NCBI GenBank assembly: GCA_963921825.1
Contig: OY997592.1
Span: 25,585,730-25,649,729 of the forward strand
Reading direction: 5' to 3'
Source of the DNA: Erodium maritimum
Taxonomy: Eukaryota > Streptophyta > Magnoliopsida > Geraniales > Geraniaceae
Length of the DNA: 64,000 nt
The position numbers and the translations under genes were made by a program. This document shows, piece by piece, positions 1 through 34,430 of the stretch. The notes under the pieces were generated by a model. That model had not been told where the DNA came from, made no database searches, and saw nothing but the letters and a program-made list of their open reading frames with translations. The stretch's first letter is position 1; every line of letters begins with the position of its first letter.

Positions 1-212
1 TGATAAACACAATGCTTGTCGTTTTAAACTGGAAAAAAATTAAAAAATTCTGATCCTCAAACAAATTCTTCTATATATGCAAAAAATAATAGCAGTGTAA
101 TAAAAAAAATTCTGTCTGCTTTGCTTGCCTATCATTTGACCTCTTTAGTGTAACTGCAAACAATTTGTTCTTTATCCGCAAACGGATATATCAATATCAG
201 CAAACAGATTTC

Positions 213-976
213 ATTTTGGTTTAGTTGGTCTAGATTCCATTATATTCTCAAACAATAAAAAATAAAACCTCAAAAAACACCCTATGTATGCTCCTCTTTT
301 GTTCAACCTATGTTACGAAGGAAAATGTTTTTCTTGGTATTCTGCCAACTTTCGCAAACTGGGATTCCTCTATTCGCAAACGACATTAACTGTATCCTCA
401 TAAAACAATTCTGCAAACTAAATATCAAAAACGAATTTGTCCTCTTTAGCTTATCCGCAAACGATTTGTTAGTCATCCGTAGAAGATTATATTGTTATAC
501 GCAAACGAGAATAACTGTATCCTCATATGAGATACAGATGAAACAATTAAAGATTAAACATGTTTAGGGACCCACCAATCCAACTAAACCCTACATTTTG
601 GTTTATTTGGTCTAGATTCCATTATATTCTCAAACAATAAAAAATAAAACCTCAAAAAACACCCTATGTACGCTCCTCTTTTGTTCAACCTATTTTACGA
701 AGGAAAATGTTTTTCTTGGTATTCTGTCAACTTTCACAAACTGGGATTCCTCTATTCGCAAACGACATTAACTGTATCCTCATAAAACAATTCTGCAAAC
801 TAAATATCAAAAACGGATTTGTCCTCTTTAGCTTATCCGCTAACGATTTGTTAGTCATCCGCAGAAGATTTTATCGCTATCCGCAAAAGAGAAAAATTGT
901 ATCCTCATATGAGTTACAGATGAAACATCTAGAGATTAAACATGTTTAGGGACCCACCAATCCAACTAAACCCTAC
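213..976. repeat. Two tandem 382-bp copies carrying the CGCAAAC word
   Basis: Copy A (213-594) and copy B (595-976) are near-identical and abut head to tail. Each contains several CCGCAAAC, TCGCAAAC and CTCAAAC words. The same text reappears, more diverged, in the 3' flank of the next gene (about 1440-1690), so each copy looks like the 3' flank of a lost copy of that small gene. The 85- and 80-residue open frames inside the copies simply follow the duplication and are not called as genes. Bases 1-212 hold no gene, only a diverged piece of the same flank. Confidence 0.85.
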
Positions 977-983
977 ATTTTGC

Positions 984-992
984 CTATATATG
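984..992 (+). promoter_or_regulatory. TATA box of the first small helical-protein gene
   Basis: CTATATATG lies about 80 bp before the ATG at 1069. The 8730 and 14266 paralogues, and gene 2983 (CTATAAATA near 2900), have a TATA box at a similar distance, which supports short, independent transcription units. Confidence 0.6.
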
Positions 993-1068
993 CAGAAAAA
1001 CTGCGCAAACAAAACATAAACTCAACATCAACTCTTAGCAAACCTCAACTCTCTCCCAATTATAAACC

Positions 1069-1383
1069 ATGGATGCTTGCAACACCGAGAAGGGTAAGAG
1101 CACGAACATCGATCTTCTAACAAAGGAAGAGCTGCTGAAGAGGGGAGATGCCATATTCGCAAAATACAACGTTCTTCTCAATGTTGAGAAGGTCACAATG
1201 AAGCACAAGAACTTAAAGGTGATGATGCTGGAGGCAAAACTTGATATCGATCTTCTTGTGGTTGAGACCGCCAAAATCGCCGATACCGACATGTCATGTG
1301 ACTGCATAACTATAGCCAAAGACCTCTTGTCCAGAGTGACAGAAGTTAACAGGGCACTGGATCGTGCTATAGGTATGTTATAG
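1069..1383 (+). CDS. Small helical protein, paralogue 1 (unknown function)
   Basis: I do not recognise this 104-residue protein. It is charged and has no signal peptide or membrane segment. Residues about 30-100 look like two or three amphipathic helices, with hydrophobics spaced as in a coiled coil (LKVMMLEAKLDIDLLVVETA). It is the most diverged of five paralogues in the block (2983, 3974, 8730, 14266), recognised by length, helical layout, a conserved M/L-rich middle helix, and the same promoter-to-ATG geometry. The ATG sits in a good plant context (aaccATGGat) about 80 bp after a TATA box. The 3' flank is rich in the CGCAAAC word. It faces the acidic gene at 1752-2396. No intron is apparent. 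It may be a gene carried by the MULE-like block; the protein-level call is inference. Confidence 0.5.
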   Translation: MDACNTEKGKSTNIDLLTKEELLKRGDAIFAKYNVLLNVEKVTMKHKNLKVMMLEAKLDIDLLVVETAKIADTDMSCDCITIAKDLLSRVTEVNRALDRAIGML

Positions 1384-1524
1384 TTGGGTACCAAAGCGTC
1401 AATGAACGACCTAGAAGAAGATGGCTTTCTTCTACTCTTTTTTGTATGGTGCTCTTTTGTTCAACTTGTGTTATGAATGAAAAGATTTCCGATAAATGTC
1501 ATTTGTTCTATTTAGCTTTTCTGC

Positions 1525-1690
1525 AAACGATTTATTCTTCATCCGCAAAGTATTATGTCGATATCCGCAAAAGGCTTTCATTTTGGTTTATTTTTTTGCA
1601 AACTGGAATGATTATATACGCAAACTGGGGTTCTTGTATTTGGAAAAGAAAACAACTGTATCCACAAACCAAAAATAAGCTTAAACATGA
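1525..1690 (+). repeat. CGCAAAC-word cluster, 3' flank of gene 1069
   Basis: Words such as CTGCAAACG, TCCGCAAAG, TCCGCAAAAG, TTGCAAACT and TACGCAAACT follow each other at roughly 20-40 bp. The tract is a diverged copy of the 382-bp tandem unit at 213-976. No coding function is supported here. Confidence 0.7.
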
Positions 1691-1751
1691 TTGATTTCAT
1701 ATGTTGAAATATTTACTTTCCACAAAAAAGAAAATTCAAAAACTACAGTAA

Positions 1752-2396
1752 TTAAGCATCATCATCATCATCATCCCAGAAATCTTCATCATCTTCAACA
1801 ACTCCTTCCTCAGGATCCTCCCCATATGGGTCTATGTTGTCTTCTTCTTCCTCTTCTCCCTCTTGCTCTTCTTCATCATCCTCTGCATGGACATCTTCTT
1901 CATCATCATCCAGCCAATCTTCATCAACATAACAATTGTCTTCTTCATCATCCTCTGCGGGAGCAGGTGCGGCAGCAGGTGCGGGAGCTGGTGCGGGAGC
2001 AGGTGTGGTTGGAGGTTCTTCTTTTTCTGGTTCAAACTCTGCATCTCCTTCCTCCTCATTCTCCTCTTCATCCTCTTCATCTTCTTCCTCATTCTCCTCT
2101 TCTTCTTCATCTTCTTTCTCATTGTCCTCTTCATCTTCATCTTCATCCAGCAGTGATTCATAATTAGGATCCCCCGGTTGAGGAATGTCGTACTCATTGA
2201 TGAGAGGGTCATCATCATCATCAGAGGAGAAGGAGGAGGAGGAAGGATTCAGCCTGCGCCTCTTTGAACAGACGTCGTCTTCGTCATCATCACTACTGAA
2301 GATTTTTGATGGTGGAGACTTGCATTCGAAAGATTTCCATTTGTCTCCATCACTGTTAGAATACAGAATAGATGGAGACTTTGGAGAAGATGACAT
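1752..2396 (-). CDS. Acidic Ser/Asp/Glu-rich protein with basic NLS-like motif
   Basis: The open frame encodes 214 residues and is very acidic. Layout: a Ser-rich N-terminus (1-35), a first D/E cluster, a basic motif CSKRRRL at about 43-49 that resembles a monopartite nuclear localisation signal, a second Ser/Asp run, a long Asp/Glu tract (about 80-125), an Ala-Pro repeat (PAPAPAPAPAAAPAPA, about 132-148), and a final acidic tail. Acidic tails of this type occur in histone chaperones and other chromatin proteins, but I see no folded domain and do not claim that function. The motif and layout are shared with 9433-9837 and 13481-13774, so it belongs to a local family. A TATA-like element (TTTATATTTA, near 2450) lies about 55 bp before the ATG. 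It is convergent with gene 1069 and divergent from gene 2983. Antisense frames here are shadows of the low-complexity coding sequence. Confidence 0.55.
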   Translation of the reverse strand: MSSSPKSPSILYSNSDGDKWKSFECKSPPSKIFSSDDDEDDVCSKRRRLNPSSSSFSSDDDDDPLINEYDIPQPGDPNYESLLDEDEDEEDNEKEDEEEEENEEEDEEDEEENEEEGDAEFEPEKEEPPTTPAPAPAPAPAAAPAPAEDDEEDNCYVDEDWLDDDEEDVHAEDDEEEQEGEEEEEDNIDPYGEDPEEGVVEDDEDFWDDDDDDA

Positions 2397-2982
2397 GGCT
2401 ACCTACTACGATAGGGATGATGAGAAAATAGTTGATTTGTGCTTAAATATAAAGATATCAAAAGGATATCAGAAAATTTGGGGAAATGAAACGATGTCAT
2501 TAATTAGGGAAGCTTTTCGTTGGGCGCGAAGAGATTTTTGTAATGATGACAGAAGATATTGAAATGAAAGGGCGAAATGAAAGGGAGGTTCTAGTCAGAT
2601 CAAAAATGAAACGACGGTTGCGTGTATTCACATCAAAAATTAAAATCATGATTACCTTACTTTTTACTGCATGCTTGACACGTGTTCTACCCTGTTGAAT
2701 TTCGGAAATTAATATTCTGATAATACAAAATTTTAGTTTGCGGAAATAATCATTTTGTTTTACGTAAAATGGTTTACCAGTTTGCGGAAATGAAAATGAT
2801 GTTTTGCGAATAATGGACATTCTATTTGCAAAAATGTGCTTTCATCACATTACGTGCGTGCTTGGGACGTGTCCCACCAAATACTCTAAATCAATACCCC
2901 TATAAATATACCACCTCTATCACCGATAAAAAAAATATTCACACTCACATCTCTCCTGAATTATTAGATCATACATACGAAA
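2397..2982. promoter_or_regulatory. Shared divergent promoter region with G-box
   Basis: This gap of about 585 bp separates the acidic gene (-) from small helical gene 2983 (+). It holds a TATA-like element for the minus gene near 2450, a GACACGTGT G-box core (CACGTG at 2679-2684), three words in reversed orientation (GTTTGCGGA twice and TTTTGCGAA, 2738-2812), and CTATAAATA near 2900 for the plus gene. The 14266 paralogue has the same G-box text about 290 bp before its ATG. Confidence 0.5.
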
Positions 2983-3249
2983 ATGGAATCATCATCAAAA
3001 AAACTCAAAATGGAAGTTCTAGACAAAGAACATCATGGATCCGTGCGTGAGCTTCGACAGTTGAAGATGTCTATCATCAAGTCCCATTTGATGATAGCAC
3101 ATGACAGGGTGGTCAATCTGATGGTTGAATTGTATGAAGAAGACATATCCAACGTGGATGAAGAACACAAGGAGTGCGTGAAGAGCATGAGGAAGACACT
3201 CCCGTTGTATAAGGCTATAATTGGAAGCGTTGTACAAGAGGGCATCTAA
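2983..3249 (+). CDS. Small helical protein, paralogue 2 (unknown function)
   Basis: The frame encodes 88 residues, mostly helical, rich in Met, Glu, Lys and Val. The stretch from RELRQLKMSIIKSHLM onward aligns by eye with gene 14266: R-x-(I/L)-R, then LM, a V-x-x-L-x-x-EL segment, D-(I/M)-SN, K-H/E-KE, and a final M-x-x-TL helix. That is good evidence of common descent. There are no catalytic motifs, membrane segments or zinc ligands. The ATG follows a TATA box by about 80 bp and has an A-rich leader (gaaaATGG). It is divergent from the acidic gene 1752-2396 and followed by word-rich tandem copies (3416-3693). Short size and heptad-like spacing suggest an oligomerising or adaptor protein; this is inference. 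Confidence 0.5.
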   Translation: MESSSKKLKMEVLDKEHHGSVRELRQLKMSIIKSHLMIAHDRVVNLMVELYEEDISNVDEEHKECVKSMRKTLPLYKAIIGSVVQEGI

Positions 3250-3693: not shown

Positions 3694-3901
3694 TACTGAT
3701 CAGACACTGGTGAGATTTGGAAGTGGTGCGTGTCAAGACACGATTGTATACTGCAAAGAGCCAGTGATTTTTGTTTTGAGGATAATTTTATAATTGTTTG
3801 AGAATTTAATACATAAGAAATACAAATCGTCAGTTTTGGATAAAACACTTGATATTCTGACCTTGAAAAGTAACTACCCACTAACCCCATTACTTTGTCC
3901 A

Positions 3902-3973: not shown

Positions 3974-4243
3974 ATGGCCTCTATGAATGTTGAATGGGAT
4001 CGCATGAATGCAGAGGATGAAGCCAGGCGGTTGGCTTCCATCCACCATTTATGGAAGCTCAAATTCACAAAAATCCAATACAATATGCTGATGATGGATG
4101 CGCAGGTGGTCAAGCTCCTGGCTGAAATCGAAACGGACGAAAACCTAATGTGGAACACAGAAGAAAGAGCTTCAAAAGAACACATGCTTGAGAATCTGAG
4201 GGAGTATCAAGAATTCCTCGGAAAAATAACTGTAGATCCCTAA
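3974..4243 (+). CDS. Small helical protein, paralogue 3 (unknown function)
   Basis: An open frame runs from 3794, but the ATG at 3974 is chosen because it has a strong context (aaaaATGGCC), gives a length (89 residues) matching the paralogues, and begins where family similarity begins. The sequence is acidic-basic and helical. LWKLKFTKIQYNMLMMDAQV then VKLLAEIETDE matches the LM-x-x-x-x-V-x-x-L-x-x-E pattern of paralogues 2983 and 14266, and the C-terminus ends in a helix with YQEFLGKI. No known domain. The upstream leader has the 39-bp palindrome; the clear TATA box of the other copies is not evident here. The 3' flank (4345-4535) is dense in CGCAAAC words and runs into the transposase promoter. 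Confidence 0.5.
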   Translation: MASMNVEWDRMNAEDEARRLASIHHLWKLKFTKIQYNMLMMDAQVVKLLAEIETDENLMWNTEERASKEHMLENLREYQEFLGKITVDP

Positions 4244-4991
4244 GCCACATCCAGAAGAAGATTGGTGGTATCTAGTTTTTCATGCATGTCGTCTTTTATG
4301 TTTTTTTTTGGTGTTTCACACACCATCTTTTCCTAATGAATCTATAAATATTCTCAAACTAGATGATGTATTTTCTCAAACCATGCTTTCTGTATTTTCA
4401 ACATGACTGACAGTATCCGCAAACTATAAACAAACAGTCCGCAAACTACATATGAAACATCCACAAACTACTTCTGAAATATCCGCAAACTTGACACTAA
4501 AAATCCGAAAACTAAATATGAAATATACGCAAAGAATCTATTCGCTAATAAAATAAAATAAAATGTTTCGATTGAACTTTCAAAACTGAATCGGGTTCGT
4601 CCATTGCGAATAATATATCGACGGTCCTAGATTAGCGCGCGAATTTACCCCAACTTTCTCTATAAAACCTCGAAATTCAAAAACGGAAGGTTCCTAAACA
4701 ACAAATAAGAAATCGAATCAAACACAGAGTTAGAAAGTCTCTCGAAAAATTCTTTACGATTTTCCAAGTATCAACCCTAGATCGGAGTTTTCTCGAAGAA
4801 ATCCAGATCACGAACTAGGTTAAAAAAACTGCGATTCTTCGAAACTTGATTCCAAAACAAAAACTCAGATCGCACCAGAGATCGCACCGACAGGATCGCA
4901 CCGTGAGATCGTCGGAAATCGCAACAGAGATCGCCGGAGATATTGATTGATATCGTCGGATTTTAACACAGCAACCAATACACAAATCGAG
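4244..4991 (+). promoter_or_regulatory. 3' flank of gene 3974 and promoter/leader of the MULE transposase
   Basis: Bases 4345-4535 carry about eight CCGCAAAC, TCTCAAAC and ACGCAAAG words. TCTATAAAACC (near 4660) is a TATA box, followed by a leader of about 300 bases rich in GATCGCA and TCGGA text, ending at the ATG at 4992. No other coding sequence is seen. Confidence 0.5.
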
Positions 4992-7900
4992 ATGTCATCT
5001 ACAATATGTAAGTATTGATCTATTCAACAAAATTGATTTTCTTCTAGAATCGCTGCAAATTTTGTTTTTCCGTTGACCAAAACGTCATGATCATGGTGGT
5101 TTTTTTATCTGTAAACTAGAATGCCTAGATACTCAAAACAGTAGTTTGTGTTGTACGATATTTAGCGACATAAAATATTTGTTTCTTCTCAAACAATATA
5201 TAAAATATCCTCCATGACAAACTCTCAAACTAGGTGTGCAGTATCCGCAAACTAACTTGCTTATTTCCGCAAAGGATAAATAATCTACTTTGCCTATTAC
5301 TATATACTAGTGCCTGTGTATCAATTTGAGTATATTATAACTATCTGATTCTATGTGTGCTGTATATGAAATCCGAAATTATTACATCCTCAAACTGATC
5401 CTTATTTCGATGAATATCAGCTGCAGGCACAAACAGTGACTGTACTGCAGAATCAGATCTCCAAAACACTGTTCTGTTTTCTGCTGGAGGAACCAGGATA
5501 TACTTGCCATCCTGCCAGCCTGAACGAACGCCGTTTGTAGGAAAGGAATTCAAGACACTGAATAAGGCGATAGATTTCTACCAAAATTGCGCTAGACTGT
5601 CTGGATTCACTACAAGAAGGTCTACGGAGAAGAAGGATAAAACAAACAACATAAAGCTAAAGTACATGGTATGCTCCAAACAGGGTGAGATCCCCAAACA
5701 AAACAGTCCGCAACTTTCAAAGACTACAAAAAAGAGGAACAGATTGCTCACAAGAATTAATTGTGAAGCAATGATAAGGTTCACATTTGTTTCGGAGGAA
5801 TTAGGATACAAAGTATCAAAATTTGTTGAAGGTCATAACCACCCTATGGTTGGAGCGGAGCACAGACATGAGATGCGAGGTAACCGACACATGGAAGGCA
5901 ACCATGTTGAGTATATGAACTTTTGCGAGAGATCAGGAATAGGTCCCTCAAAGGCACACAGACTAATCAATGAAACACGCGGAGGCCCCAGCCATGTTGG
6001 AGCTTTGAAGCAAGATTTCTTCAACTACCACAGGGACTTGAAAGCTTATATTGGAGGAAGTGATGTTCAGATAATCCTTGACCAGTTCCGTGACAAGAAG
6101 GTAGCCAACAACAAGTTCTACTATGAGTACGATGTTGACACAAGCGGAAGCCTCACTAAGCTATTCTGGTGTGATGAAATAGCTATCAAGAATTACTAGC
6201 TTTACGGGGATAATGTTTCCTTTGACACAACTTACAGGACTAACCAGTAAGTATTACTCGTATTCGCTAATTCATTGAAAAAGAAATTTTAAACATTATT
6301 CTTTATTAACGATTGATGTTTTGTAGGTACTCGATGTCATTTTGTCCGTTTACAGGAGTAGACAACTATGACAAATCTGTGACTTTTGCGCTAGGACTAG
6401 TAACACATGAGGATATCGAGTCTTTCACTTGGATGTTCAACGCTTTTCTGAAAGCGATGAATGGGAAGCAACCAATGTATCTGGTGACAAATCAAGACCC
6501 AGCAATGAAAGTTGCAATACCTAAAGTCATGACAGACATTAAGCACAAACTCTGCATGTGGCACATTATGAATAAGATTCGTCTTAAGGTCAGTCTCTAT
6601 AAGAAAATCATATACTCTGTATCCACATCTTGTAATGCTTGTTTACTCAAAACGTTTTATTCTTAATATGGTTCTCATAGTTAACTACTATGCGATGAGT
6701 TTATATCTATTCTCAAACTGTTATGTCTGTTTTCTCAATCTATGAACACAAAATATCCATATGCCACAGTATTGTCAATTACTATTATTTATTTGTTCGA
6801 GTTTACAAATCTTACGAAAAATGTTACAGGTGCCTGGAAGTATAACAAATGATACAGACTTTGAGAAAAGGTTGGATTCCATAGTATACAACAACCTTAT
6901 AGGCCCTGATGAGTTTGATGAAGAGTGGGCTAGCATCATTGAAGACTTCAATTTGCAGGACAACACTTGGCTCAATGGCATATTCGAGTTGCGACACAGT
7001 TGGATCCCAGCATACCATAGGGATTTCCCGATGGGGTTGTTTATGAGAACAACATCAAGGTCTGAATCAGCCAACCGGGCCTATCAACAACTCACAGATC
7101 AGTACCTAAACCTTGTTCACTTGATCTGGCGGTGTGGAGTGGTGATAGAGAACCAAAGGAATGAACATTTCAGTCTTATGATTCACAGCTACAATTCATA
7201 TCCGGTGCTGAAGACAAACACGTGGTTTTGAAGCAGATACTTAGACTGTATACACACATACTGTGTTTGCTGACATACAAAAGCATATAGTTTACGCTCT
7301 CAACCGCTGCAGCTTGCCAAGCATGGATGACACCGTAGATGACACCATTGTCTATAAAGTCAGGGATTCGTCGATTATTAAAGATGGTAAGGAATTCAGG
7401 GTGACTTGGACGATGAGTACAAACAACTTTGAGTGCAATTGCAACAAGCTTCTAACAACGGGCTATATATGTTCTCACATATTCTTTGCGCTGCAAAACA
7501 CAACGTTAAGGAAGATTCCTAGGACGCTGGTAAACCCGAGATGGTGTAAAGACACAAACTTGTCAGCTACATTGTCTTCTAATGGTGTTGCACCTGAAGG
7601 TCCGAGTCTGAAGGACGATGAAGTTATGGATGCAGTGAAAACCAGGTTTACTGAAATGATTGGGACAGAAGATGCAGCAATTTCAAGTATTCGAGGATTG
7701 TTTGACACTCTAAATCGATACAGAGTGAAGACGATGGATGACATAGTGAATGAGAATAGACTCAATAGAACAAGTTTCATAGCATCAGTGACAGGGATCA
7801 AATTACCAGAAATAGTCACTGTCCAGCCACCAAATATCACAAACACCAAGGGCTCTCGCTTGCGATCTGGGAGTAGAATGATCAGTAATAAAGAAAAGGC

Positions 7901-8186
7901 AATCAATGCTAGTAACAAGCGAAAACGACTATGCGCTACATGCCGCACAATGCAAGACCATGACACAAGGACCTGCCCTCTGAAGAAGAAGAAGAAGAAG
8001 AAGAAGAAGAAGAAGAAGAAGAAGAAGAAGAAGAAGAAGAAGAAGAAGAAGAAGAAGAAGAAGAAGAAGAAGAAGAAGAAGAAGAAGAAGAAGAAGAAGA
8101 AGAAGAAGAAGAAGAAGGATGTATATTTTCAACTGTGGATTTCGTTGTTTCTGTTTGCGAATATAGACAATAAGTTTTGCGAATAA
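4992..8186 (+). pseudogene. MULE transposase, FAR1/FHY3 type, decayed
   Basis: Proposed exons: 4992-5007, about 5421-6246, 6327-6588 and 6830 onward, with GT-AG borders that keep phase. Order of parts: FAR1-type zinc-binding domain (about 5570-5860; CAR, MVCSKQG, INCEAM and EGHNH supply the C/C/C/H-x-H ligands); MULE transposase core with Asp in VSFDTTYRTNQ, Asp in LVTNQDPAM and an acidic DEEW further on, plus the CMWHI motif; SWIM finger CNCNKLLTTGYICSH near 7440-7480; C-terminal CCHC-like knuckle CATCRTMQDHDTRTCP. It would cut and paste MULE ends. Damage seen: an in-frame TAG at 6197-6199, a one-base frame change near 7225-7231, an in-frame TAG at 7242-7244, and a runaway AAG tract in place of the natural C-terminus. 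Introns contain the CGCAAAC word. A domesticated FRS host gene is the alternative, but the lesions and the second copy at 48255 favour a transposon. Confidence 0.85.
7982..8117. repeat. (GAA)n microsatellite, about 45 units
   Basis: This is an uninterrupted GAA run of 136 bp. In the transposase frame it reads as poly-lysine directly after the zinc knuckle (TCPLKKKK...). The antisense poly-serine and poly-leucine frames are artefacts. Confidence 0.95.
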
Positions 8187-8729: not shown

Positions 8730-9047
8730 ATGGCGTCGTCAAGCAGCAGGAAGCGTAAAAGCTATGAAGATGAACTCGATGAACGCGAAAGGAAGCTGAA
8801 CGAGCAGAACAAGAAGGACAGAAAACAAAAGCGTCTCATCAAACACGAGAAGTTTGTGACGAGCTTCAATGAAATCAAGGCTAAGCTTTCTGAGATCGAG
8901 CTTGAGCTTGAAATATTGGCCATGGATGTTGGCGACGAGTTGTGCACTGACATGAGCACCGAAGAGGTGCTTGCAAACACAGTCCTCACCAGGAAGATAA
9001 ACGAAGTGATCTTAGCAGTGAACAAGGTTATGAAACTGGTGGTATAG
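8730..9047 (+). CDS. Small helical coiled-coil protein, paralogue 4
   Basis: The frame encodes 105 residues. The N-terminus is basic (SSSRKRKSYEDELDERERK), followed by a lysine/glutamate-rich helix and a leucine-rich coiled-coil stretch (about 45-75: IKAKLSEIELELEILAMDVG). The C-terminal helix ends KVMKLVV. RKRK could act as a nuclear signal. Size, helix order and promoter layout match the other four paralogues, though identity is low. The start is fixed by aaaaaATGGCG. The frame is intact with no intron. It lies between the transposase and a minus-strand acidic gene, repeating the convergent arrangement of 1069 and 1752-2396. Function unknown; nuclear adaptor is inference. Confidence 0.5.
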   Translation: MASSSSRKRKSYEDELDERERKLNEQNKKDRKQKRLIKHEKFVTSFNEIKAKLSEIELELEILAMDVGDELCTDMSTEEVLANTVLTRKINEVILAVNKVMKLVV

Positions 9048-9184
9048 GGGTAGCAAACCCTATTCTCTTCTATTCCTTTTGTCTGTTCTTAACCAGTTTA
9101 AAGTAATTAAAAAAATCGTTTTCCTTAAAATCGTTTATATTTCACTTTCAAGTCATGTATAATTCCATGATTTGTGTTACACGC

Positions 9185-9420
9185 GAAACATGATATTAGT
9201 ATCAGCAAACCATGATCTCTGTATCCGCAAACCAGGATCTCTGTGTCCGCAAACTACAGTCCATAATTATATTCGCGAAACATAATAACAGTATCCGCAA
9301 ACTACAAGTCCGTATTCGCAAACACCAAGTAAAGAGAAACAAATTAACATTATAAGCAAACCAGGATCTTTGTATCCGCAAAGAGAGAGCCCTATATCCT
9401 AAAAATGAAATAACTTGTGG
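9185..9420 (+). repeat. CGCAAAC-word cluster downstream of gene 8730
   Basis: About eight words in 220 bp (CCGCAAACC, CCGCAAACT, TCGCGAAAC, TCGCAAACA, AAGCAAACC and others), several preceded by GTAT or TAT. The same block, rearranged, recurs at 13505-13670, the far side of the solo LTR. Confidence 0.8.
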
Positions 9421-9432
9421 CAAAAGTTACAT

Positions 9433-9837
9433 TCACCAATCTTCGCTCTCCCAGTCTTCTTCTTCGTCATCATCATCTTCTTCTTCTTCATCCTCTTCAA
9501 CATCACCATTATAACCATAATCTTCTTCTTCATCTTCCTCATCATCATCCTCTTCAACATCACCATTATACCCATCATCGTCTTCCTCCCCATTTTCTAT
9601 CTTCTCCTCTTTCTCATCATCGGCATCATCACTGATGATAATAGGGTAATCCTCTTCATCACCATGTGAAATCAGCCTTCGTCTCTTTGAAGTTACCTCT
9701 TCCTCGCCGAAAGGGATAAAGACAAGATGATGACGACACTGAAAGGGATTCAGGACTTCTTCAAAAGCATATCGATAGCAGAGGGCGAAGGTACATCCGA
9801 CCCATGAAGGATGTAGTTTTATTTTCACTATTATCAT
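9433..9837 (-). pseudogene. Acidic NLS-type protein, chimeric 5' end
   Basis: The 134-residue frame has EVTSKRRRLISHGDEED (about residues 48-64), matching the basic motif of 1752-2396. A long Asp/Glu tail follows, with an internal repeat built on YNGDVEED. The first 45 or so residues are not family sequence: that DNA (9713-9837) is the antisense of the 3' end of a small helical gene like 14266. The frame therefore starts in borrowed sequence and the natural N-terminus is missing. It is convergent with gene 8730. I call it a rearranged, probably non-functional family member; expression from the fused region is possible but unsupported. Confidence 0.55.
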
Positions 9838-13480: not shown

Positions 13481-13774
13481 CTAACATGTTTGCAAAAAAC
13501 TAGGGCATATCCGCAAACTACAGTCCATAATTAAATTCGCGAAACATAATAACAGTATCCGCAAACAACAAGTACAGAGGAATAAATTAACAATATTAGC
13601 AAACCAGGATCTCTTTATCCGCAAACTACAAGTTCGTATCCGCAAACACCAAGTAAAGAGAAATAAATTAACAATATTAGGGCAATCCTCTTCATCACCA
13701 TGCGAAATCAGCCTTCTTCTCTTTGAAGTTACGTCTTCCTCACCGCTACTACAGTGCTTTCTATATGGTGACAT
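13481..13774 (-). pseudogene. Remnant of the acidic NLS-type gene
   Basis: The start reads GEEDVTSKRRRLISHGDEEDC, nearly identical to 9433-9837, but the frame then runs straight into CGCAAAC-word DNA instead of an acidic tail. The word block (13505-13670) duplicates 9250-9400. The coding part left is only about 30 residues. Confidence 0.65.
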
Positions 13775-24400: not shown

Positions 24401-27400
24401 TAGCGTTAACTGTGTTACTGGAGGCATATGACCATGCCCGGAGGTTGTTGTGCGTTAATTGTTGATTGAGTTTGGGTGGCCCTGAGAGCCCGTGTTATTT
24501 ATTGTCGAGTTTGGGTGGCCTTGAGAGCCCGTGTTATTTATTGCTGAGTCTTGGGTGGCCATGAGAGCCCGTGTTGTCGTTTCGGTGGTTTGGGTGGCCG
24601 TGAGTGCCCGTGGGGTTGTGAACCCGTACTTTACCGTTGGTGTCTTGGGTGGCCATGAGGGCCCGTAGGGTTGTTGAAACTGTGTTTGGTTGTTGGTGTC
24701 TTGTCGGCCTTGAGTGCCTGTGGAGTTGTCACCGGTGTCGTTACTGTCTGTTTGAACTTGTTTGTGATTGTGATTGGTTACTGGTTACTGGTGGAGGTTG
24801 TGTGGTGTAGCTAGCCTCCCGACTGGGATCGGGAGAAGCGGAGGGGTTGTGGGCTAGCTCCCCGACTGGGATCGAGGGAAGGACGCGCGGGTGTGGCTAA
24901 CCACCCGACTGGGATCGGGTGAAGCGGAGAGGTTGTGGGTTAGCCTCCCGACTGGGATCGGGAGAAGTTGCGCGACAGGTCGACCGCCTGACCACGTCTA
25001 TGATCGGTAAAGGGCGAGAGACAGAGATTGGTTACTGAGCAGCCGGTTTGCGATCCTTTGTGATCTTGTTTGGTATTGTGTGGTTGTCAGTCGTGTCTTT
25101 GGAGGAGGTCGTCGATGGTAGTGTGGGGTCTACATAACGTATCCGAGTGTTGAGTCAGTTGAGGAAAAGACTGGTCGTGTGTGTGTCTTTGAGTCGTTGT
25201 TAGTGTCATCGGCTTTGTCTACTAATTATGCCATAGTCAGTATGTTATTTGTGGTGGTGAGCGAACGCTCACCCCTAGCTGCTTTTCCTACAGGTACCGT
25301 TCGTAGTCTGGACTAGGTGAGCTTCTGAAGCTTGAAGAGCTTGAAGCGGGTTACTGGGCGTTTGAGTCTAGAGACGTGTATCTCGTTTTGTCCAAGTGTG
25401 GAACTCTTATTTTGGGATGTAACTATTATTCTTCTGTGGAACTAAACTGACTTTTTAGGTGATTTATCGAAAACAGGTTTCAGTCTTGTAACTTTTTGAA
25501 CGTTCGCGTCCCTAGTTTCGGTTCTCTGAAATTGGGGCGTGACATATTTTCTGAAACAGCACAACCATTATTTACATCTATAGAATTCAATGCATCAAAA
25601 CTACATGGATAATCAATTGGCATAATAGAGGAGGGATAAGAACTTGATACCTCACATTCCGCACTTACCTCTAAACTCTGTCTTGAATCACGAGTTTCTT
25701 TTTCTGTTATGTCACATAAGTGCTCGGAATGATCATCCTCAAGGTGGACTTCTTGATCATCAAAGTTTGTCTCATTAATCAATTGCACGAGATCATTCAT
25801 TTGACCTTGAAGCTCTTGGACCATGGACGCATGTTCCTCTTGTTTCCTCATCATCTCGTCCATCTTGTCCATCTCATCATGTCACTTTTCCTCCTCAAAT
25901 TGGTTTGGAAAAGCTAGACAAAAATCCTCTTCACTAGGCAATTCAAAAGTGGAAGCGTCCCCCCAATTTTGACTATAGTCCCTTGAATGCAAAAGAACCT
26001 CGCAATTGTAAAAATAATGATCATTAGCACCACATATATCACAACACCCTCTATTAGGGAACCAATTCTCCATAAAAGCAACGATGCAAAGAATCAACTA
26101 AAAGAGAAATATATACAAGAATGAAACAGACGTAGCACAAACTATATAGCAAGGGTCGCCTAATTGCTCCCTGGCAACGGCGCCATAAAACTTGACGCCC
26201 TGCGGGTTTTAATCGCAAACTTGAGCACGGCAAGTGCACCGGCCGTCAAGTAGTAATCAGATTTGAAGTCCGGAATATCGAGCCCAAAGGAGCAATAGAC
26301 AATCACTTACTATTTAAAGCTTGTAGCTAAGCTATTTCGGTAAAAATCGAGTTTTTATTTTTTGAAAATAAACCTATAACGACTAGAAAGAAAATACAGA
26401 ATTTAACAGAGAGTTTTCTTATCTTGAATCAAGTGAAGAGAAATCAAGGGCATGGGTTCATCGAGTTCATTCCATAAAATTGAACACGTTCGATTGTAGC
26501 GATGTCGATTTATTTTAGAGGCAACAAGTTGTCTCGACTCTAGTCCTAACTTCTTTCGAACGATTCGGACCCTAATGGAATCTAACCACCGAGTTCTTTC
26601 GAATCACGATGTAGGAAGACCCAAAGCGTTAAGCTCTATGACAACTTCTAACTTTCGACCAAACAAGTCTATAGATATTGCAATTGTATTAACCCCGCTA
26701 GTTCTAGCTAAAGTTTAAATCCAACCTATGGTCGATTTTTGACTTAATTAGAACCCTCCTCTTTCGAGCGACGAATCCTAATTCAAAACAATTACCAAGC
26801 CTACACGGGAGGTAAAGCATTAAGCACAAATCAATCATAGACACTAATACAAATCAACAACACCACAATCGAAGCATTCAAAATATGGAAATCCCTACTC
26901 TAATCCCCCATAGCCCTAGAAATTGGGGGTTTAGTTGTTCATGGTGAGAAAATGCAAAGATGAGAATGAGCAAACAATTAAATTCATAATGAAGATAAAA
27001 GTTGAGATACAATCACCAAATTAGTCGTCTAATGTTGCTCTTCCTCTTCTTCGATCCCTCTCCTTGAAGCTCTTGAAGATGCACCAAAACAAACCCACTT
27101 GTGTAGCCAACAATGGAGATTGTCTCCAAAAATCAACACCCAAATAAATATCAAATGATGCTCTACTCACAAAAGATAGATCCTCAACAATCAAATTCAA
27201 AATAATAAACTCTCTCCTTAATTCAAAACAAAAATAAAATAAAATAAAACTATACAAAAATATGGCTTTTTCTTTTCCTTCGGTTCTGTTCTCTCTCGAA
27301 AAATGGTGTAGAAGGAGCTCCTCCTTTGTGTTGTGCGGCTCAGCCTAAAAGAATGAGTGCTGCCCTAGAAATTCAGCCAACCAGGAGAAGACAGGTGTTG

Positions 27401-27973
27401 TGCTGGGAAAGGTGGATCCGCTGGGACAAGTGTCGGCTTGCGGGGCGTGTGGCGGCTGGAGAATGGCACGTGGCGCGAGCTGGGGAGGTGGCGGCTGGAG
27501 AAGGCCACGTGTCGCGCAGAGGGGAAGTGGCGGCTGGAGGCCGCCACGTGTCAGGCGGTCAAAGCACCACGCGCCGCGAGATGGGAGATTGGCGACTGGC
27601 GGCGGCTGCAGGCGCTGGACACGTGTCAGGCGGCAGTTTGCCGCTCCATTTTTCATCCTTTTTCGCTATTTTGCTCGCTCCGGCTTCGTTTGAGCTCCGA
27701 TCGATCTCGTTCTTGTGCCAAAATATTTATCTTTTCAAGACCTACAAAACAAGACCAGACATGAGTATATTTCGAAGCGATCAAAATCGACCCTCTTAAC
27801 GGTCCAAGTGCATAAAACACCCAAAATACGCCGAAAATCCATCGAAACCCCGAACATATCAATAAAATCAATTATTCACACTAAACATAAATACATGATA
27901 GAAAATCGGGACCAAAAGCCTAAATAACTCGATAAAAAGTGGCCCTTTTAAGTGTTAAAATGCACCCGCATCA
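18403..27973 (-). mobile_element. Ty3/Gypsy LTR retrotransposon (tRNA-Asp primer type), broken, young
   Basis: The two 1781-bp LTRs (18403-20183 and 26193-27973) begin TG and end CA, flanked by the 5-bp duplication CAACC (18398-18402 and 27974-27978). Next to the 5' LTR is TGGCGCCGTTGCC (about 26173-26185, minus strand), complementary to the 3' end of tRNA-Asp, as in Athila-like Gypsy elements. A purine-rich tract (GTGTGGGGTGT) adjoins the other LTR. Named parts: a gag-type zinc-knuckle segment (near 26030) and a retropepsin-like segment starting with ADRSIRYPRG (22502 downward). I recognise no reverse transcriptase or integrase, so it is broken, apart from also being interrupted by a solo LTR. 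The LTRs differ at only about ten sites that I noticed, which suggests insertion well under a million years ago. It lies inside a Ulp1 exon. Confidence 0.9.
22555..25544 (+). mobile_element. Solo LTR, Gypsy family A, nested in the tRNA-Asp Gypsy element
   Basis: Begins TGTAAAACTCCC and ends TTGGGGCGTGACA, with target duplication TATTT (22550-22554 and 25545-25549). It has the GC-rich 5' module (22,650-23,450), the 40-bp minisatellite (about 24450-24740) and the hairpin GTGAGCGAACGCTCAC (25257-25272). It inserted after the host Gypsy element, so it is among the younger events here. Confidence 0.9.
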
Positions 27974-27978
27974 CAACC

Positions 27979-28533
27979 TTATTCCCCGCTAATCGAAACC
28001 TTTATGCAATCCTCTGAATACAATAAAAAGAAGCATGTTAATGAGATTAAATGCAAACAAATAAAACATAGGGTATGCATCAACTACAAAACACATTTGC
28101 AACCCAAAATGTGCATATTTGCATACAATAAACCTACGCACATATCACATGCAGCAAATACTCAAAACTGTTTTGCAAACCAGAGTGCGCATATTCGCAA
28201 AACAAATAATCACTATCCGCAAACTAGGTAAAGCATACTCTCAAAACATAAATTCACTATCCACAAACAGGGTAAAACATATTCGCAAAACATATATTCA
28301 CTATCCGCAGACTAGGTAAAACATATTAGCAAAAAGGTCAATCAATAACAGGGTATGCATCACCTACAAAACACATCTGCAAACCAAAAATGTGCATATT
28401 TGCATACAATAAACCTACACACATATCACATGCAGGATATACTAAAAATTGTTTCTACCAGAGTGCACACTCTCGCAAAACATAGAATCACTATCCGCAA
28501 ACTAGTTAAACCATACTCGCGAAACATAAATTC
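27979..28533 (+). repeat. CGCAAAC-word region between two insertions (Ulp1 exon start and intron)
   Basis: Bases 27974-28005 are the start of the interrupted Ulp1 exon. From 28080 two diverged copies (28080-28330 and 28350-28530) share CACAAAACACAT, AAACCTACGCACATATCACATGCAG text and words such as TTCGCAAAACA and TCCGCAAACT. Confidence 0.75.
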
Positions 28534-31500
28534 TGTAATAACTACTCCCGGTCAACGCCAGTCAAACCTGCGAAAAACAGGAAAATTTAAAAAATTTAAG
28601 ACAGGCACTTAAATGAACCCAAATACGACCCCGAGGGTCATACCGGACATAAGTTGACCCCGATATCGACCAAAGTGAGTTCTGGGGGACTCAGGGCAAC
28701 TTTCTGATCAATTTGGGAAATGTTGACTCTTCGCTGGAAAAGTCAACCGAGCGACGTTTTGGTCCATTCGAGGACCGTTTGGGATCCAAAAGGCTTAGCC
28801 GTCGTCGCAACGGTCTTAGTTGATCCGTTTCCTTGTATCCCGTCAAGTTTCGTAATTTCTTGGAAAAAGTGCCCGTTCGGGGCCCGAAACGTCCGAATTT
28901 CGCGAATCTGATTTAAATATATCTAGAAGATATTTTCTCAAAAAGGTGTGGGACCCACTTGACACTTGTCAAATATGTGGTGGTGTTAGGTTTATTGAAC
29001 AAAACAAAAGATGAGACATGTGAGGGGTAGTTTGTAATTAAGTGTTAGTTTTGTTTTTAAAACAAAACAAAAAGGAAGTCAAATACAAGGTCTCGGCCAA
29101 GACATTTCAAAAGGGAAAAGGGTGAGTTTTTAGAGAGAGAAAGGAGTTAGAAGGAAGAGAGAAAAGAGAGAGAAAGAGAAGAGGGTTTGGAGTTTTGCCA
29201 CTATTCCCGATCATCTAGCTATTGGATCGTCTCAACGATAGAAGATTCAAGCTCACACTGTCATTCTCTACGGTGAGCACCTAACCGATTTTCGTTTTGT
29301 TAAGTTTAAAAGTTAGGGTTTGGGTTAAAACTAGTAGTTTTTGGATGTGTTGAGGTGTGGGGTTCGTTAGGAACGTTTTGGGGCAAAAAGGAACATTTTT
29401 CGTTGTGGCCGTGTGGGGCCCACATGCTCGGGTTTTCGTGTTCGTGTGGGTTAGGACGTTCCCCGGATCATTAATCTACAACCGGATCGAAATTTGGAAT
29501 TAAATTGTAAAAGTTGTAATTGACGGGTTTAGAAACTTTAAACACTAATTAAATGACTCGGAAGTCGGAATTCGATTCCGTCGAGTGCCTAGGAACCCTT
29601 GAATTATTATAAGACGGTAGAAACGAAAACGGAGATTTTCGGAGCCCCGGAAGGGCGTTTCCAAAACCCGGGCAGATTCGCCATGTCGGGCGAATCGGGC
29701 CTTTTCGGGTCCAATATCGAAAATGTCGAGTAATTGGGGAGTTTGGGAGTGATCGACATTGTCAGGGTTACTTTTGGGCGTCGGGTTTATTAAAATTCAG
29801 TTTATGCCTGCAAGCTTAAAATAGTTTAAAATTGTGTTCTTGTTAGATCGTGCTGCAGACCGAGGAAAGGGAAAGCTAGGCGAGTGACCGAGATCACGCC
29901 GGAGCTTAATTGTGCGCTTTTGGAGAAAGCATACGAGGTAGGGAAAAGTAGCCGGATCTCGGCCCTGACTAGGGAAAGTTAACAGTAGAATTGCATGTGA
30001 CACCGGGGTGTCGTGGGTTAAGTATGTTTATCGAATATTAGAAAGGCATGATACGGGAACGTAGCGAATATTAGAAAAGCGTGTGACACTTAGTAGTGTC
30101 GTAGGAGCAGAGAACTTATCGATGTTAGAATTACTGGAGGCATATGACCATGCTCGGAGGTTGATTGTGAACTTATCGATATTAGGAATACTGGAGGCAT
30201 ATGACCATGCCTGGAGGTTGATTGTGAAAATGTTGATATTAGGACTGTTGGAGGCATTGGTTATGCCGGAGGTTGATTGTGTTTTTTGTGTCTTGGGTGG
30301 CCATGAGAGCCCGTGTTTTACTGTTGTGTCTTGGGTGGCCATGAGAGCCCGTGTTTTACTGTTGTGTCTTGGGTGGCCATGAGAGCCCGTGTTTTACTGT
30401 TGTGTCTTGGGTGGCCATGAGAGCCCGTGTTTTACTGTTGGTGTCTTGGGTGGCCATGAGTGCCTGTGGGGTTGTTGAACCCGTATCTTTATTGTTGGTG
30501 TGTCTTGGGTGGACGTGAGTGCCCGTGGGGTTGTTGAACCCGTGTCTCTACTGTTGGTGTGTCATTGGAGGCTGTGAGTGCCTGTGGGGTTGTTGAGCCC
30601 GTGAGTTACTGTTGGTGTGTCTAAGGAGGCCGTGAGTGCCTGTGGGGTTGTTGAGCTCGTGAGTTGTTGGTGGTTTTGAGAGGCCGTGAGTGCCCGTGGG
30701 GTTGTTGAGCCCGTGAGTTACTGTTGGTGGTTTTGAGAGGCCGTGAGTGCCAGTGGGGTTGTTGAGCCCGTGAGTTACTGTTGGTGGTTTTGAGTGGCCA
30801 TGAGTGCCCGTGGGGTTGTTGAGCCCGTGAGTTACTGTTGGTGTATCGTGGGAGGCCGTGAGTGCCTGTGGGGTTGTTGAGTCCGTTTTTTACGGTTGGT
30901 GTCTTGGGTGGCCATGAGTGCATGTGGAGTGCTGAACTTGTGTTGTTGTTGTTTGTTTAACTTTGTTTGTGATTGTGATTGTGATTGTGGTTACCTGAGG
31001 TTGGGGGCTCGCTTCATGAAACGGGCGTCCTCGAGCACACGCGTCTGCATGTTCAGACGGGGTAGGGGGCCCGCCCGTTAGTAAAGGGGTCCTGGCCGCG
31101 CGTGTGTGGTTTGGGGTTGTGAGTGTGACAGGTCGACCGCCTGGCCCGACTTTGTGTCGGGGAAGCGCGTGAGAGAGAGAGGTTTCTGATACAGGTCGAC
31201 CGACTGGCCTGAGAGTTCGGCAAAGCGCGTGATTGAGGGAGGTTACTGAGCAGCTGGTATGTGATCCTTTGTGATCTTGTTTGGTGTGCGATCCTTTGTG
31301 ATCTTGGGTGTTGTGTGGTGGTCTTTTGAGTCCTTGGAAGAGGTCGTGATCGTTGTGTTGGGTCTACTTTACGTGTCAGAGTGTTGAGTCGGTCGAGGAA
31401 GGTAACAGTGGGTGTGTGTCAGTCGGAGTACTTGGGTTGGGGATAGTGTTCCCCAGTGTGAGTTTGTTATTGGTGTTACCGGCATTGTCTGCTAATTATG

Positions 31501-31817
31501 CCGTAGTCAGTCTGTTATCTGTGGTGGTGAGCGAACGCTCACCCCTAGCTGCTTTTCCTACAGGTACCGATCACGGGACGGACTAGGTGAGCTCTCGAAG
31601 CTTAAGGAGCTAGGAGCGGAGTCCGGGTTTTATCTTTTGAGTCTAGTGACGGATACCTTGTACTTTGTCCAATTGTTGGGACGTTTTTGAGTTGTAAATA
31701 TTATTTTGATTAACTAAATGGTGATTTTAAAGTGTTTATTCAAAACAAGTTTCAATTGTTTTATTATTTTAAACGTTCGCGTCCCGAGTTCGGTTTTACT
31801 GAAATTGGGGCGTGACA
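28534..31817 (+). mobile_element. Solo LTR, Gypsy family B, in a Ulp1 intron
   Basis: Begins TGTAATAACTACTCCCGG and ends TTGGGGCGTGACA; target duplication AATTC (28529-28533 and 31818-31822). The 5' 1.3 kb differs from family A and matches the LTRs at 48759, 52639 and 58887. The 3' part (from about 29,840) is shared by both families, with minisatellite (30285-30950) and hairpin (about 31529-31544). Confidence 0.9.
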
Positions 31818-31822
31818 AATTC

Positions 31823-31945
31823 ACTATCCGCAAACTAGGTAAAGCATATTCGCAGAACATATATTCACTATCCGCAAACAAAGGTAAGCATATTAGCAAA
31901 ACAAGTCAATCAATAAACCTCACTGTATATTTAAAAAACATAATT
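31823..31945 (+). repeat. CGCAAAC words, rest of the interrupted Ulp1 intron
   Basis: TCCGCAAACT, TTCGCAGAAC and TCCGCAAACA words continue the tract found left of the solo LTR. A run of C follows at about 31946-31957. Confidence 0.65.
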
Positions 31946-33334
31946 CCCCCCCCCCCGAAAAAAAATAATTAAATAATAGAATACCTCTACAGAACCCCTT
32001 TCACTATGGAACGGGGGGGTATTCGGGGCCGGTGGATCTCCTCCATTTCTATCCCCCCTTTCATTATCTCTATTTACGTTAGGGGGTTGATGCTGAGCAA
32101 CATTCTCTTCCCCCCTAACACGTGGAGGACCCTCCCTCCGTATGTGACCCATTCCAAATGCATCACATTGTAATTCATCACCGACTCTTTTGTTCACCAA
32201 TGCAGTATTCCATCCAATCAAAGAGGGCCACGCCCTAGGAACCTAACACGTGCTGACTTCAACACGATCAAGATAAAACAACTGCATCATTCAAAGAAAA
32301 AGACATGCCACATGAATATAACATAAGAGTTTAATAAATATAAAATACAACACATTAAAATGAAAAATAAACTTACCAACAAGAAAGTTAATTATCCAGA
32401 AAAATTCTTTGAACCTTCGAGTTGATTTAACTAGGTTTTTTTTTGTATCCACAAGTTTCTTGACTAAAAACTTGCGCCAATTAAAATCGTGTATGTGAGA
32501 AACATCAACAATAGAACGGAAGCATGATTGATTCACATAACCCTCATTCCCCGAATCGATCATGCAAGTCACAAACAACATCATGAAGTTTCTTTTGAAA
32601 TCATCTCCCCCTTCAATTTGCGTCTTCATCTGATCAACCAACTGCTTACTGGTGATAAGACGCTTGATCTCGCCTTTGTCTTTTGTATCGAACTGCCGTT
32701 GCCACAATTTAAGTTCATCAGTGCACAGGGTGCCCCACTTATCGACTATGACGTCACGTACACCATTTGGAATGCCCAAAGTTTCATGCACTTCCTTCTC
32801 TGTGATACGCAATTACGCATCTGGCAAACCCAATGATGAGCTAAGGTGGTTATACTTAGACACCAGGTAGTATCCAATCTTGCTTGGGATGATCTTCACA
32901 GCAAAATAAAGAATGTGCCCAAACCCAATTTCCCGCACTGCTTCTTGTTGGTGTTTATTCAAACTCTCCACCAACTCAACCAATCTCTTTGGAGATGACC
33001 TGGTCTTCAAAACATCATCCACACCAACCTTATCAGATAACGGAACAACTCTATCAGACTCACAACCCTTGGTGCGCTTAACATTCTTCTTCTCAACAGC
33101 TAATTCTCCACCTCTCTTCTTTCCGGCTTTAGCAGGTCGGACAGCTACATCGAGAGATTCACAAACCTCTGCTACCTTCTTCTTTTTAATTGAAAGTCTT
33201 CGTTTATCTTTATTGATAATAGACTTCTGCTCCTTCAACATATTAGCAAGAGTCGTATTTCCTTCACCAACATCAGCCTCTGTGGATGGCCTATCCATTA
33301 AAAGAAGAGGTAGCACTGTATCCGGAGTTTTATC

Positions 33335-33937
33335 TATAATTCGCAAACAAGGGTTAGCATTTCAGCAAAACAGACAATATACAAAAACATTGAATATTCG
33401 CAAGAAAGAAAAACAGTGCCCACAAACAAGATACTATATATTCGCAAAACATAAATTCACTATCCGCAACTAGATAAAGATAATTCGCAAAACATATATT
33501 CACTATCCGCAAACAAGGTAAAGCATATTATCAAAACAAGTCAATCAATAACAGGGTATGCATCAACTACAAAACACATCTGCAAACCAAAATGTGCATA
33601 TTTGCATACAATAAACCTACGAACATATAAAATGCAGGATTATTCAAAACTGTTTCTCAAACCAGAGTGCGCACTCTCGCAAAACATAAATTCACTATTC
33701 GCAAAACAGAAAAACAATGCCCGCAAACAAGATACTCGCAATACAGAAACCCCAAAACCTCAACCAACAACTTGATTTTCCTCAAAAATATATCAAAATC
33801 ATCTCATAGTTGAATAATTTCATGGGAATTTCATATATGAATTGAAATGTTGTACACTAAAAGCAAAACAAAACCACTCTGAAAACATAGCAACTGTAAA
33901 AAATCTGCAAACTACAAACACTATATTCTCAAATTAC
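33335..33937 (+). repeat. CGCAAAC-word cluster in Ulp1 intron 1
   Basis: The first intron (33937-33335) is made largely of words (TTCGCAAACA, TTCGCAAAAC, CCCGCAAACA, TCTCAAACC). The first one overlaps the intron's 3' splice site. A block here (33540-33700) is a copy of 28080-28500. Confidence 0.75.
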
Positions 33938-33992
33938 CTGATTCGGTGTCCCTGTTGCAGAATGTTGTAGATTCAGCAACCTTCTTCTTCAT

Positions 33993-34430
33993 TCTCTACA
34001 GACGGATTACTATAATCAAAAAGCTAAATAACCAAACGAACAAGATTGAATCAAAACCCTAAACACCAAAAATTGTAACTCACCAACAATGAACTATTTG
34101 AAATTCACTTCGAAATCACGCAGAAGACGAAAATCAAGGCAATGGAAGCTCAAAAGATCAGATTCCGAAATGTTCGTTTCGCTAAAAACTCGATTCTACA
34201 AGTCTTTTGGTGAGCACGAAACGTTTATGCGCGAACGGGTAGATAAAATTACGTTTATACCCCCGAACCATAGCAAATCAGTTAAAATGAATCCCACGCG
34301 CGACTTATTTACGACGCGTGCCACTGATGACGCGTTCAAATCTGCGCCATCGCGAAATTCACATCGGACGACCATCACGCAGTGCGCAGGTTCGCACCAA
34401 ATCAGGTGGTTCGCACCTGATTGCTCTCCT
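33993..34430 (-). promoter_or_regulatory. Upstream region of the Ulp1-like gene
   Basis: No gene and no words are seen. The tract is CpG-containing (ACGCGT, GCGCGAAC), which suits a leader or promoter for the minus-strand gene; a clear TATA box is not evident. The open frames here are short and unsupported. This marks the right edge of the word-rich block. Confidence 0.35.

What the first reader, a model, noticed from the sequence alone, without database searches (positions are those of the whole stretch)
1..34430. An about 18-kb multi-gene MULE-like block saturated with a short CGCAAAC word
Seen: with inserted LTR elements set aside, every non-coding stretch from base 1 to about 33,940 contains a degenerate word (T/C)C(G/T)CAAA(A)C at 20-60 bp spacing, in introns and between genes, and the inserted LTR elements lack it. 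Within the block lie a FAR1-type MULE transposase, a Ulp1-like protease gene, five small paralogous helical genes and three acidic genes or remnants. Known: VANDAL MULEs of Arabidopsis lack long terminal repeats, carry extra genes besides the transposase, and one product (VANC) counters silencing by binding a short motif repeated in the element's non-coding DNA. Inference: this is an analogous self-recognition system with a different word and an unusually large gene set, one of whose products may bind the word.
Basis: partly seen in the sequence, partly recalled or inferred. Interest (0 to 1): 0.88.

Follow-up and report, generated by a model that had tools for sequence, protein, structure and literature searches.

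The report
Jumping gene with a self-marking lattice
A large plant jumping gene and many small relatives carry the same short DNA word repeated at an almost exact 22-letter spacing, which suggests a protein recognises their DNA this way, perhaps one that the large jumping gene itself makes.

Summary
YCKCAAA(A)C occurs 82 times in 9,006 bp of non-coding block DNA (shuffles 1.9), 0 in coding, 8 in 16,295 bp of LTR inserts, 8 in 30,000 bp of flank.

(1) The block is one DNA transposon, about -280 to 34,430, ~18.4 kb without three LTR insertions, with imperfect ~60-bp TIRs. An insert-free copy sits between (TA)n tracts. The FAR1+MULE transposase has 146 listed matches, itself included; 119 have a small-gene match within 25 kb.

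(2) Words form a lattice: neighbours 22 bp apart, spacers no more alike than chance. Genome-wide, 22-bp pairs number 13,219, against 180 at 25 bp and 636 reversed.

(3) Eight short relatives match the full element only in TIRs and word stretches (94 of 94 hits) and match none of 12 element protein pieces, so the lattice probably acts in cis.

Best reading: a multi-gene, TA-microsatellite-targeted MULE tagged for recognition by its own protein, VANDAL/VANC-like in logic but with TIRs, a FAR1 transposase and no detected VANC. Binder and function are unproven.

The parts
1..34430 (.). The MULE, interrupted by three LTR insertions; its left TIR (about -280 to -219) lies just outside the window, its right TIR at 34367-34430
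   Evidence: TIR alignment score 26, shuffle max 19 of 1000; deletion copy at C1:15921.5-15924.4 kb with both ends; insert-free copy
34367..34430 (-). Right terminal inverted repeat, GGAGAGCAATCAGGTGCGAACC read inward, next to (TA)n
1069..1383 (+). Small helical gene h1 (family beta)
1752..2399 (-). Acidic-tail protein gene with basic KRRRL patch, divergent from h2
   Evidence: dN/dS 0.38 against E1
2983..3249 (+). Small helical gene h2 (family alpha)
3974..4243 (+). Small helical gene h3 (family alpha)
4992..8128 (+). FAR1-type MULE transposase gene, several exons (start and splice sites read by eye); this copy has an in-frame stop and a frame disruption
   Evidence: PF03101 6.6e-15, PF10551 6.9e-20; lesions read
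8730..9047 (+). Small helical gene h4 (family beta)
   Evidence: AF2 helical hairpin pLDDT 89; 150 matches listed, itself included
9428..9713 (-). Truncated acidic gene joined to the 3' remnant of a lost small gene (9714-9800)
   Evidence: 85% match to the h5 3' end
13685..13777 (-). Remnant of a third acidic gene
14266..14595 (+). Small helical gene h5 (family alpha)
   Evidence: AF2 pLDDT 83
15540..33361 (-). Ulp1-like protease gene (inferred exons); insert B lies in a coding exon, insert C in an inferred intron, and stops interrupt the frame
   Evidence: spliced model with HYTLLCID and DCGVY motifs; PF02902 E 0.0025, 18.1 bits, below the 20.7 cut-off
4341..4541 (+). 22-bp word lattice between h3 and the transposase
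   Evidence: print
9180..9340 (+). Word lattice after h4
15041..15480 (+). Word lattice beyond the 3' end of the Ulp1 gene
16342..16530 (+). Word lattice in an inferred Ulp1 intron, eight units in register with differing spacers, two of them degenerate
28184..28533 (+). Word lattice in an inferred Ulp1 intron, interrupted by insert C
33425..33750 (+). Word lattice near the right end
2743..2809 (-). Words on the opposite strand upstream of h2 (others: 3781-3803, 8160-8479, 14084; 12 of 82 words in all)
9981..13420 (.). Insert A: solo LTR, target duplication CGTAT (read by eye)
18403..27973 (.). Insert B: LTR retrotransposon, LTRs 99.5% identical, target duplication CAACC (read by eye), inside a Ulp1 coding exon
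28534..31817 (.). Insert C: solo LTR of the same family as A, opposite orientation, target duplication AATTC (read by eye)

Best explanation
A multi-gene MULE of the TA-microsatellite-targeting kind carries, through much of its non-coding DNA, a lattice of the word TATYCKCAAA(A)C at 22-bp steps (about two helical turns, so the words face one side). SHOWN: the element, its ends, the lattice, the genome-wide preference for 22 bp, its presence in short relatives without the element's genes, and that genes and lattice travel together in a full-length copy. INFERRED: an element-encoded protein (a small helical protein, the Ulp1 N-terminus or the FAR1 transposase) binds the lattice cooperatively, coats the element and its relatives, and brings the acidic protein and the SUMO protease to keep the DNA free of silencing. 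That is VANC-like self-recognition with a different binder.
For: Non-coding confinement. 22-bp steps with spacer identity 0.31 between neighbouring words, against 0.32 between random word pairs, so recent 22-bp duplication does not explain the period. Genome-wide pairs: 13,219 at 22 bp against 180 at 25 bp; CG-CG pairs 8,249 against 20 reversed. In the 100 listed pairs, 62 spacers are distinct and word types match in 83 (53.6 expected; pairs within one element are not independent). Eight short elements keep only TIRs and word stretches: 94 of 94 hits to the full copy, 0 hits for 12 element protein pieces. Lattice in introns and between genes, as for VANC21 targets (PMC5735166, Results read). 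A sister locus with 70% identical transposase has 13 CT words and 1 CG word.
Against: No binder identified; no DUF1985 found; h4 has no significant PDB fold match. Between recent copies the words change no slower than expected by chance (0.060 observed, 0.062 expected; 0.081 and 0.077). The sister locus L046 shows no 22-bp spacing between its words. Short elements without the genes need no expression, which favours a transposition role as much as anti-silencing. No chromatin data.
Confidence: 0.45

Rival explanations
1. The lattice is a transposase-assembly array: the FAR1 transposase binds TGCGAAC repeats in the TIR and related CGCAAAC words inside, and the lattice is needed for cut-and-paste, not for chromatin.
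For: Some short elements are close to TIR + lattice + TIR (L027a: 381 bp, 11 words). In L022-L025 the arrays point outward on both sides. The TIR motif TGCGAAC is 5/7 like CGCAAAC (my reading, no test). Precedent: TnpA and MURA also bring hypomethylation (passage in PMC10398659).
Against: Lattices run through introns and the interior of an 18-kb element, far from the ends; orientation in the full element is not symmetric; L030 has a one-way array.
Confidence: 0.3
2. The word is bound by a host protein (activator or silencing factor) and the elements have accumulated it to exploit or suffer host regulation.
For: Binder unknown; the lattice occurs with many spacers (62 distinct in 100 listed pairs).
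Against: Word type differs between families, unexpected for one fixed host factor. The lattice tracks one TIR clan: 13 of 16 examined lattice loci other than L034 have at least one such TIR beside (TA)n, 3 of 16 none (relaxed pattern; L012-L021 were not examined).
Confidence: 0.13
3. Old 22-bp tandem repeats created by slippage and left to decay, without function.
For: TRF finds 22- and 44-bp arrays; 40 of 82 words lie in duplicated blocks; words are not slower-evolving than the rest between recent copies.
Against: Core information persists while spacers are near random, even in units not selected for the word; the same core and period recur with different spacers; 0 full words in coding DNA.
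Confidence: 0.07
4. A true VANDAL/KIU element whose VANC is simply too diverged to detect.
For: Antisense Ulp1 gene; motif arrays in introns and between genes.
Against: FAR1-domain transposase, clear TIRs, no DUF1985 hit.
Confidence: 0.05

Closest known systems
VANDAL / VANC (Arabidopsis; PMC5735166 Results read; PMC10398659 introduction and passages; PMC6446971 passages)
   Same: Multi-gene MULE; short motif dense in introns and between genes, arrayed in one orientation; motif types differ between related families; repeat arrays evolve fast
   Different: VANDAL lacks TIRs or has short degenerate ones and forms its own MULE clade; VANC has DUF1985. Here: TIRs, FAR1 transposase, (TA)n targets, 22-bp phase, small helical and acidic genes. 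The passages I read give no spacing for VANC motifs.
MuTAnT / AutoMuTAnT (Medicago; PMC4486113, passages)
   Same: Targets (TA)n; transposase like Jittery; short non-autonomous relatives
   Different: AutoMuTAnT is 4.9 kb with one ORF; no word lattice in the passages read
SaTar / AgS-MULE (guayule, rice; PMC5907723, parts 1-2 of 6 and part 1 of the Discussion read)
   Same: Short TIR elements and autonomous MULEs in microsatellites, stacked side by side
   Different: No 22-bp lattice or accessory gene set in the parts read
Ulp1-carrying MULEs: KAONASHI, melon, rice and grape elements, Jittery-like ones included (PMC2528002 and PMC13317346, passages)
   Same: Ulp1 gene beside a MULE transposase
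   Different: Small helical and acidic genes and lattice not described in the passages read
Spm TnpA and MuDR MURA (passage in PMC10398659)
   Same: Element proteins that bring about hypomethylation of their own copies
   Different: As recalled, their sites are terminal or subterminal, not spread through an 18-kb element

Membership tests
MULE superfamily | MULE transposase domain | tested here: met
   PF10551 6.9e-20, PF03101 6.6e-15
MULE superfamily | 8-11 bp target site duplication | tested here: inconclusive
   no 9-11-mer shared between -400..+60 and 33941-34450 (four 8-mers are); ends of E1 lie in (TA)n, where a duplication cannot be read
TA-microsatellite-targeted MULEs (MuTAnT/SaTar) | (TA)n on both sides | tested here: met
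   E1 and the deletion copy L034; the window copy itself has (TA)n only on the right; 779 TATATA+TIR termini genome-wide, 0 reversed
TA-microsatellite-targeted MULEs (MuTAnT/SaTar) | imperfect TIRs of about 40-250 bp | tested here: met
   about 60 bp
TA-microsatellite-targeted MULEs (MuTAnT/SaTar) | Jittery-clade transposase | tested here: inconclusive
   FAR1+MULE domains fit; no tree was built
VANDAL | no or degenerate short TIRs | tested here: not met
VANDAL | VANC with DUF1985 | tested here: inconclusive
VANDAL | short motif dense in non-coding DNA of own family | tested here: met
VANDAL | motif-dependent anti-silencing | not testable with these tools
   needs methylation and binding data
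Ulp1 (C48) proteases | His-Asp-Cys catalytic domain | tested here: inconclusive
   PF02902 18.1 bits, below cut-off 20.7, on a model with inferred splicing; HY..D and DCG motifs visible; no PDB sequence match

The most novel reading that the evidence does not exclude
An element-encoded protein assembles cooperatively along a 22-bp-phased DNA lattice that works as a transferable self-tag. The large element pays for the binder, a histone-handling acidic protein and a SUMO protease, and a large population of short elements (roughly one to four thousand lattice loci by extrapolation from the first 100 pairs; gene content tested in eight) keeps only TIRs plus tag and shares the benefit. Tag and binder co-evolve, seen as CG-word and CT-word families.
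Probability: 0.3. Interest if true: 0.88.

Novelty: new variant of a known kind. Interest (0 to 1): 0.74.

Why it matters
In the papers I saw, sequence-specific anti-silencing by transposons is worked out in detail for Arabidopsis VANDALs. A second element type with a motif array, strict phasing and a large natural set of short test cases would show whether self-tagging of non-coding DNA is a general transposon strategy. It would also offer a short DNA tag and a candidate binder for targeted chromatin opening. The 22-bp rule gives a sharp, testable prediction about cooperative binding.

Tried and rejected
Transposase relatives in viral contigs and genome contigs: none. Pfam on the five small proteins and others: nothing above a cut-off for them; NCBIfam likewise. 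Fold search of h4: 239 matches with E up to 10, none at 0.001 or better; h5 was not searched. Selection on words in recent duplicates and between window and E1: no slowdown. Chance TIR rejected. A VANDAL label rejected (TIRs, FAR1). dN/dS between window and E1: h1 1.01, h2 1.13, h4 0.54, h5 0.59, pooled 0.78 (h3 left out, no intact counterpart found); acidic 0.38; three transposase pieces 0.23, 0.42, 0.32; Ulp1 0.85 (middle exon) and 0.38 (N-terminal); the row 'Tpase exon2 C' was out of frame (30% identity) and is dropped. Random placements for the co-occurrence counts used rough contig lengths.
Full report
WHAT WAS CHECKED. The window lies at C5:25585730-25649729 of a 763-Mb genome, a plant by its content (my inference; species unnamed). 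The word YCKCAAA(A)C occurs 82 times in 9,006 bp of non-coding block DNA, against 1.87 in shuffles, and 0 times in 8,699 bp of block exons. It stops sharply on the left: 30 kb of upstream DNA hold 4 words, one of them at -82 inside the element. It is sparse in the LTR inserts (8 in 16,295 bp, shuffle mean 4.3) and the right flank (8 in 30,000 bp, shuffle mean 7.3).

THE ELEMENT. Three insertions interrupt it. Two are solo LTRs (9981-13420 and 28534-31817) and one is an LTR retrotransposon (18403-27973, LTRs 99.5% identical). Each has a 5-bp target duplication, read by eye. The outer ends carry an imperfect inverted repeat of about 60 bp (left -276 to -219, right 34427 to 34367; score 26, best of 1000 shuffles 19). 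An internally deleted copy at C1:15921.5-15924.4 kb joins the window's left 1.8 kb to its right 1.2 kb and lies between (TA)n tracts. An insert-free copy of 18.9 kb at C1:36655560-36674530 (E1) has its main colinear blocks 84-93% identical to the window, extra small-gene copies, (TA)n on both sides and 73 words. The pattern TATATAGGNNNNCWATCASGTGCGAACC occurs 779 times genome-wide and 0 times reversed. The window copy itself lacks (TA)n on its left side.

GENES. The transposase has FAR1 and MULE domains and is broken here by a stop and a frame disruption. Its first large exon has 146 listed matches, itself included, from 834 candidates, mostly 90-97% identical. The small genes are two families (h2/h3/h5; h1/h4), each significant within and not between; one member of each is predicted as a helical hairpin (h4, h5). 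E1 has a further copy of each family; its paralogue pairs show dN/dS 0.26 (h4) and 0.56 (h5), which fits constrained proteins for h4 and less clearly for h5; h1 and h2 compared with E1 give about 1. The acidic gene (1752-2399) has dN/dS 0.38 against E1. Two acidic genes (1752-2399 and the remnant 13685-13777) sit divergently beside small genes. The Ulp1 gene runs antisense to the transposase; its C48 match is below the curated cut-off. Of 146 transposase matches 119 have a listed h4 match within 25 kb (random mean 1.5). Of 94 Ulp1-exon matches 76 have one within 30 kb (random mean 1.0). The lists score only part of the candidates (150 of 529 for h4).

THE LATTICE. Same-strand neighbours are exactly 22 bp apart in 29 of 73 cases, and in 18 of 49 after dropping second copies of duplicated blocks (random placement mean 0.31, maximum 3 of 2000). 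In neighbouring word pairs 22 bp apart the ten spacer positions are 31% identical, against 32% between random words. Units 22 bp from a word, taken whether or not they match, still show information in the core and little in the spacer. CAAAAC- and CAAAC-type words tend to alternate (identity at that position 0.34 in 29 pairs at 22 bp, 0.69 in 13 pairs at 44 bp). Genome-wide, pairs at 22 bp number 13,219 (reversed 636) and at 25 bp 180 (reversed 124). CG-CG pairs number 8,249 (reversed 20), CT-CT pairs 2,518 (reversed 562); the remainder, 2,452, is mixed. In the first 100 listed pairs, all on C1 and partly from the same elements, 83 have the same word type (53.6 expected) and 62 spacers are distinct. 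These 100 pairs fall into 30 clusters, 15 with two or more pairs. One sister locus with a 70% identical transposase has 13 CT words and 1 CG word, but no 22-bp spacing between them.

SHORT RELATIVES. Of 16 examined lattice loci other than L034, 13 have at least one TIR of this kind beside (TA)n and 3 have none (a relaxed pattern; L012-L021 not examined). Eight short elements of 0.3-1.5 kb from seven of these loci (limits set by hand) were compared with E1: all 94 blastn hits fall in the TIR (13) or in word-bearing stretches (81), and 12 protein pieces of the element find no match in them. L027a, 381 bp, has 11 words. This is the strongest sign that the lattice is a cis-acting determinant.

MECHANISM. 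Words 22 bp apart face one side of the helix, which suits cooperative binding. Which protein binds is not shown. VANC21 binds dense same-orientation motifs in non-coding DNA of its own family and hypomethylates them (PMC5735166), so the logic is the same. The alternative, a transposition array, is supported by the short elements and cannot be excluded. Against constraint: words change at the rate expected without selection between recent copies, which may reflect decay after insertion.

NOVELTY. TA-targeted MULEs (PMC4486113, PMC5907723) and Ulp1-carrying Jittery-like MULEs (PMC2528002) are known. In the search listings I saw no title or abstract start reporting a phased word lattice or this gene set. 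The most relevant paper on eudicot VANC evolution (PMC9016345) is not held, so I know it only through the review PMC13317346 (passages).

Noticed in passing
window 34431-34815: A second TIR element (ends GGGTTGGTATC / GGATAGCTACCC) stands directly beside the MULE, joined by (TA)n; a related element in the other orientation stands beside the deletion copy L034. This looks like SaTar-style stacking.
   Followed up: partly
window 7982-8117: A perfect (GAA)45 run extends the transposase C-terminus as a poly-lysine stretch.
   Followed up: no
window 2743-2809, 3781-3803, 8160-8479, 14084: The 12 words on the minus strand all lie in the 5' flanks of h2, h3, h4 and h5 (within about 600 bp), while the words after these genes are on the plus strand; h1 does not follow this.
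   Followed up: partly
L022-L025: Short elements of about 1.1-1.5 kb with two word arrays pointing outward to the two ends.
   Followed up: partly
L046 (C1:110290000-110298999): Sister element with a 70% identical transposase, mostly CT-type words without 22-bp spacing, an acidic-gene-like stretch and a 71% match near the h4 start.
   Followed up: partly
left TIR, L009 9734-9790: The TIR repeats TGCGAAC two to three times, two of seven bases away from the lattice word CGCAAAC; possibly the same binder family.
   Followed up: no
window 35527-36144: Copia-type gag (PF14223, 4.7e-17) just right of the element.
   Followed up: no
window 36947-39044, 43054-44905, 48759-51592, 52632-56018, 58886-62347: Several copies or parts of one tandem-repeat-rich LTR family (same as inserts A and C) crowd the rest of the window.
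   Followed up: no
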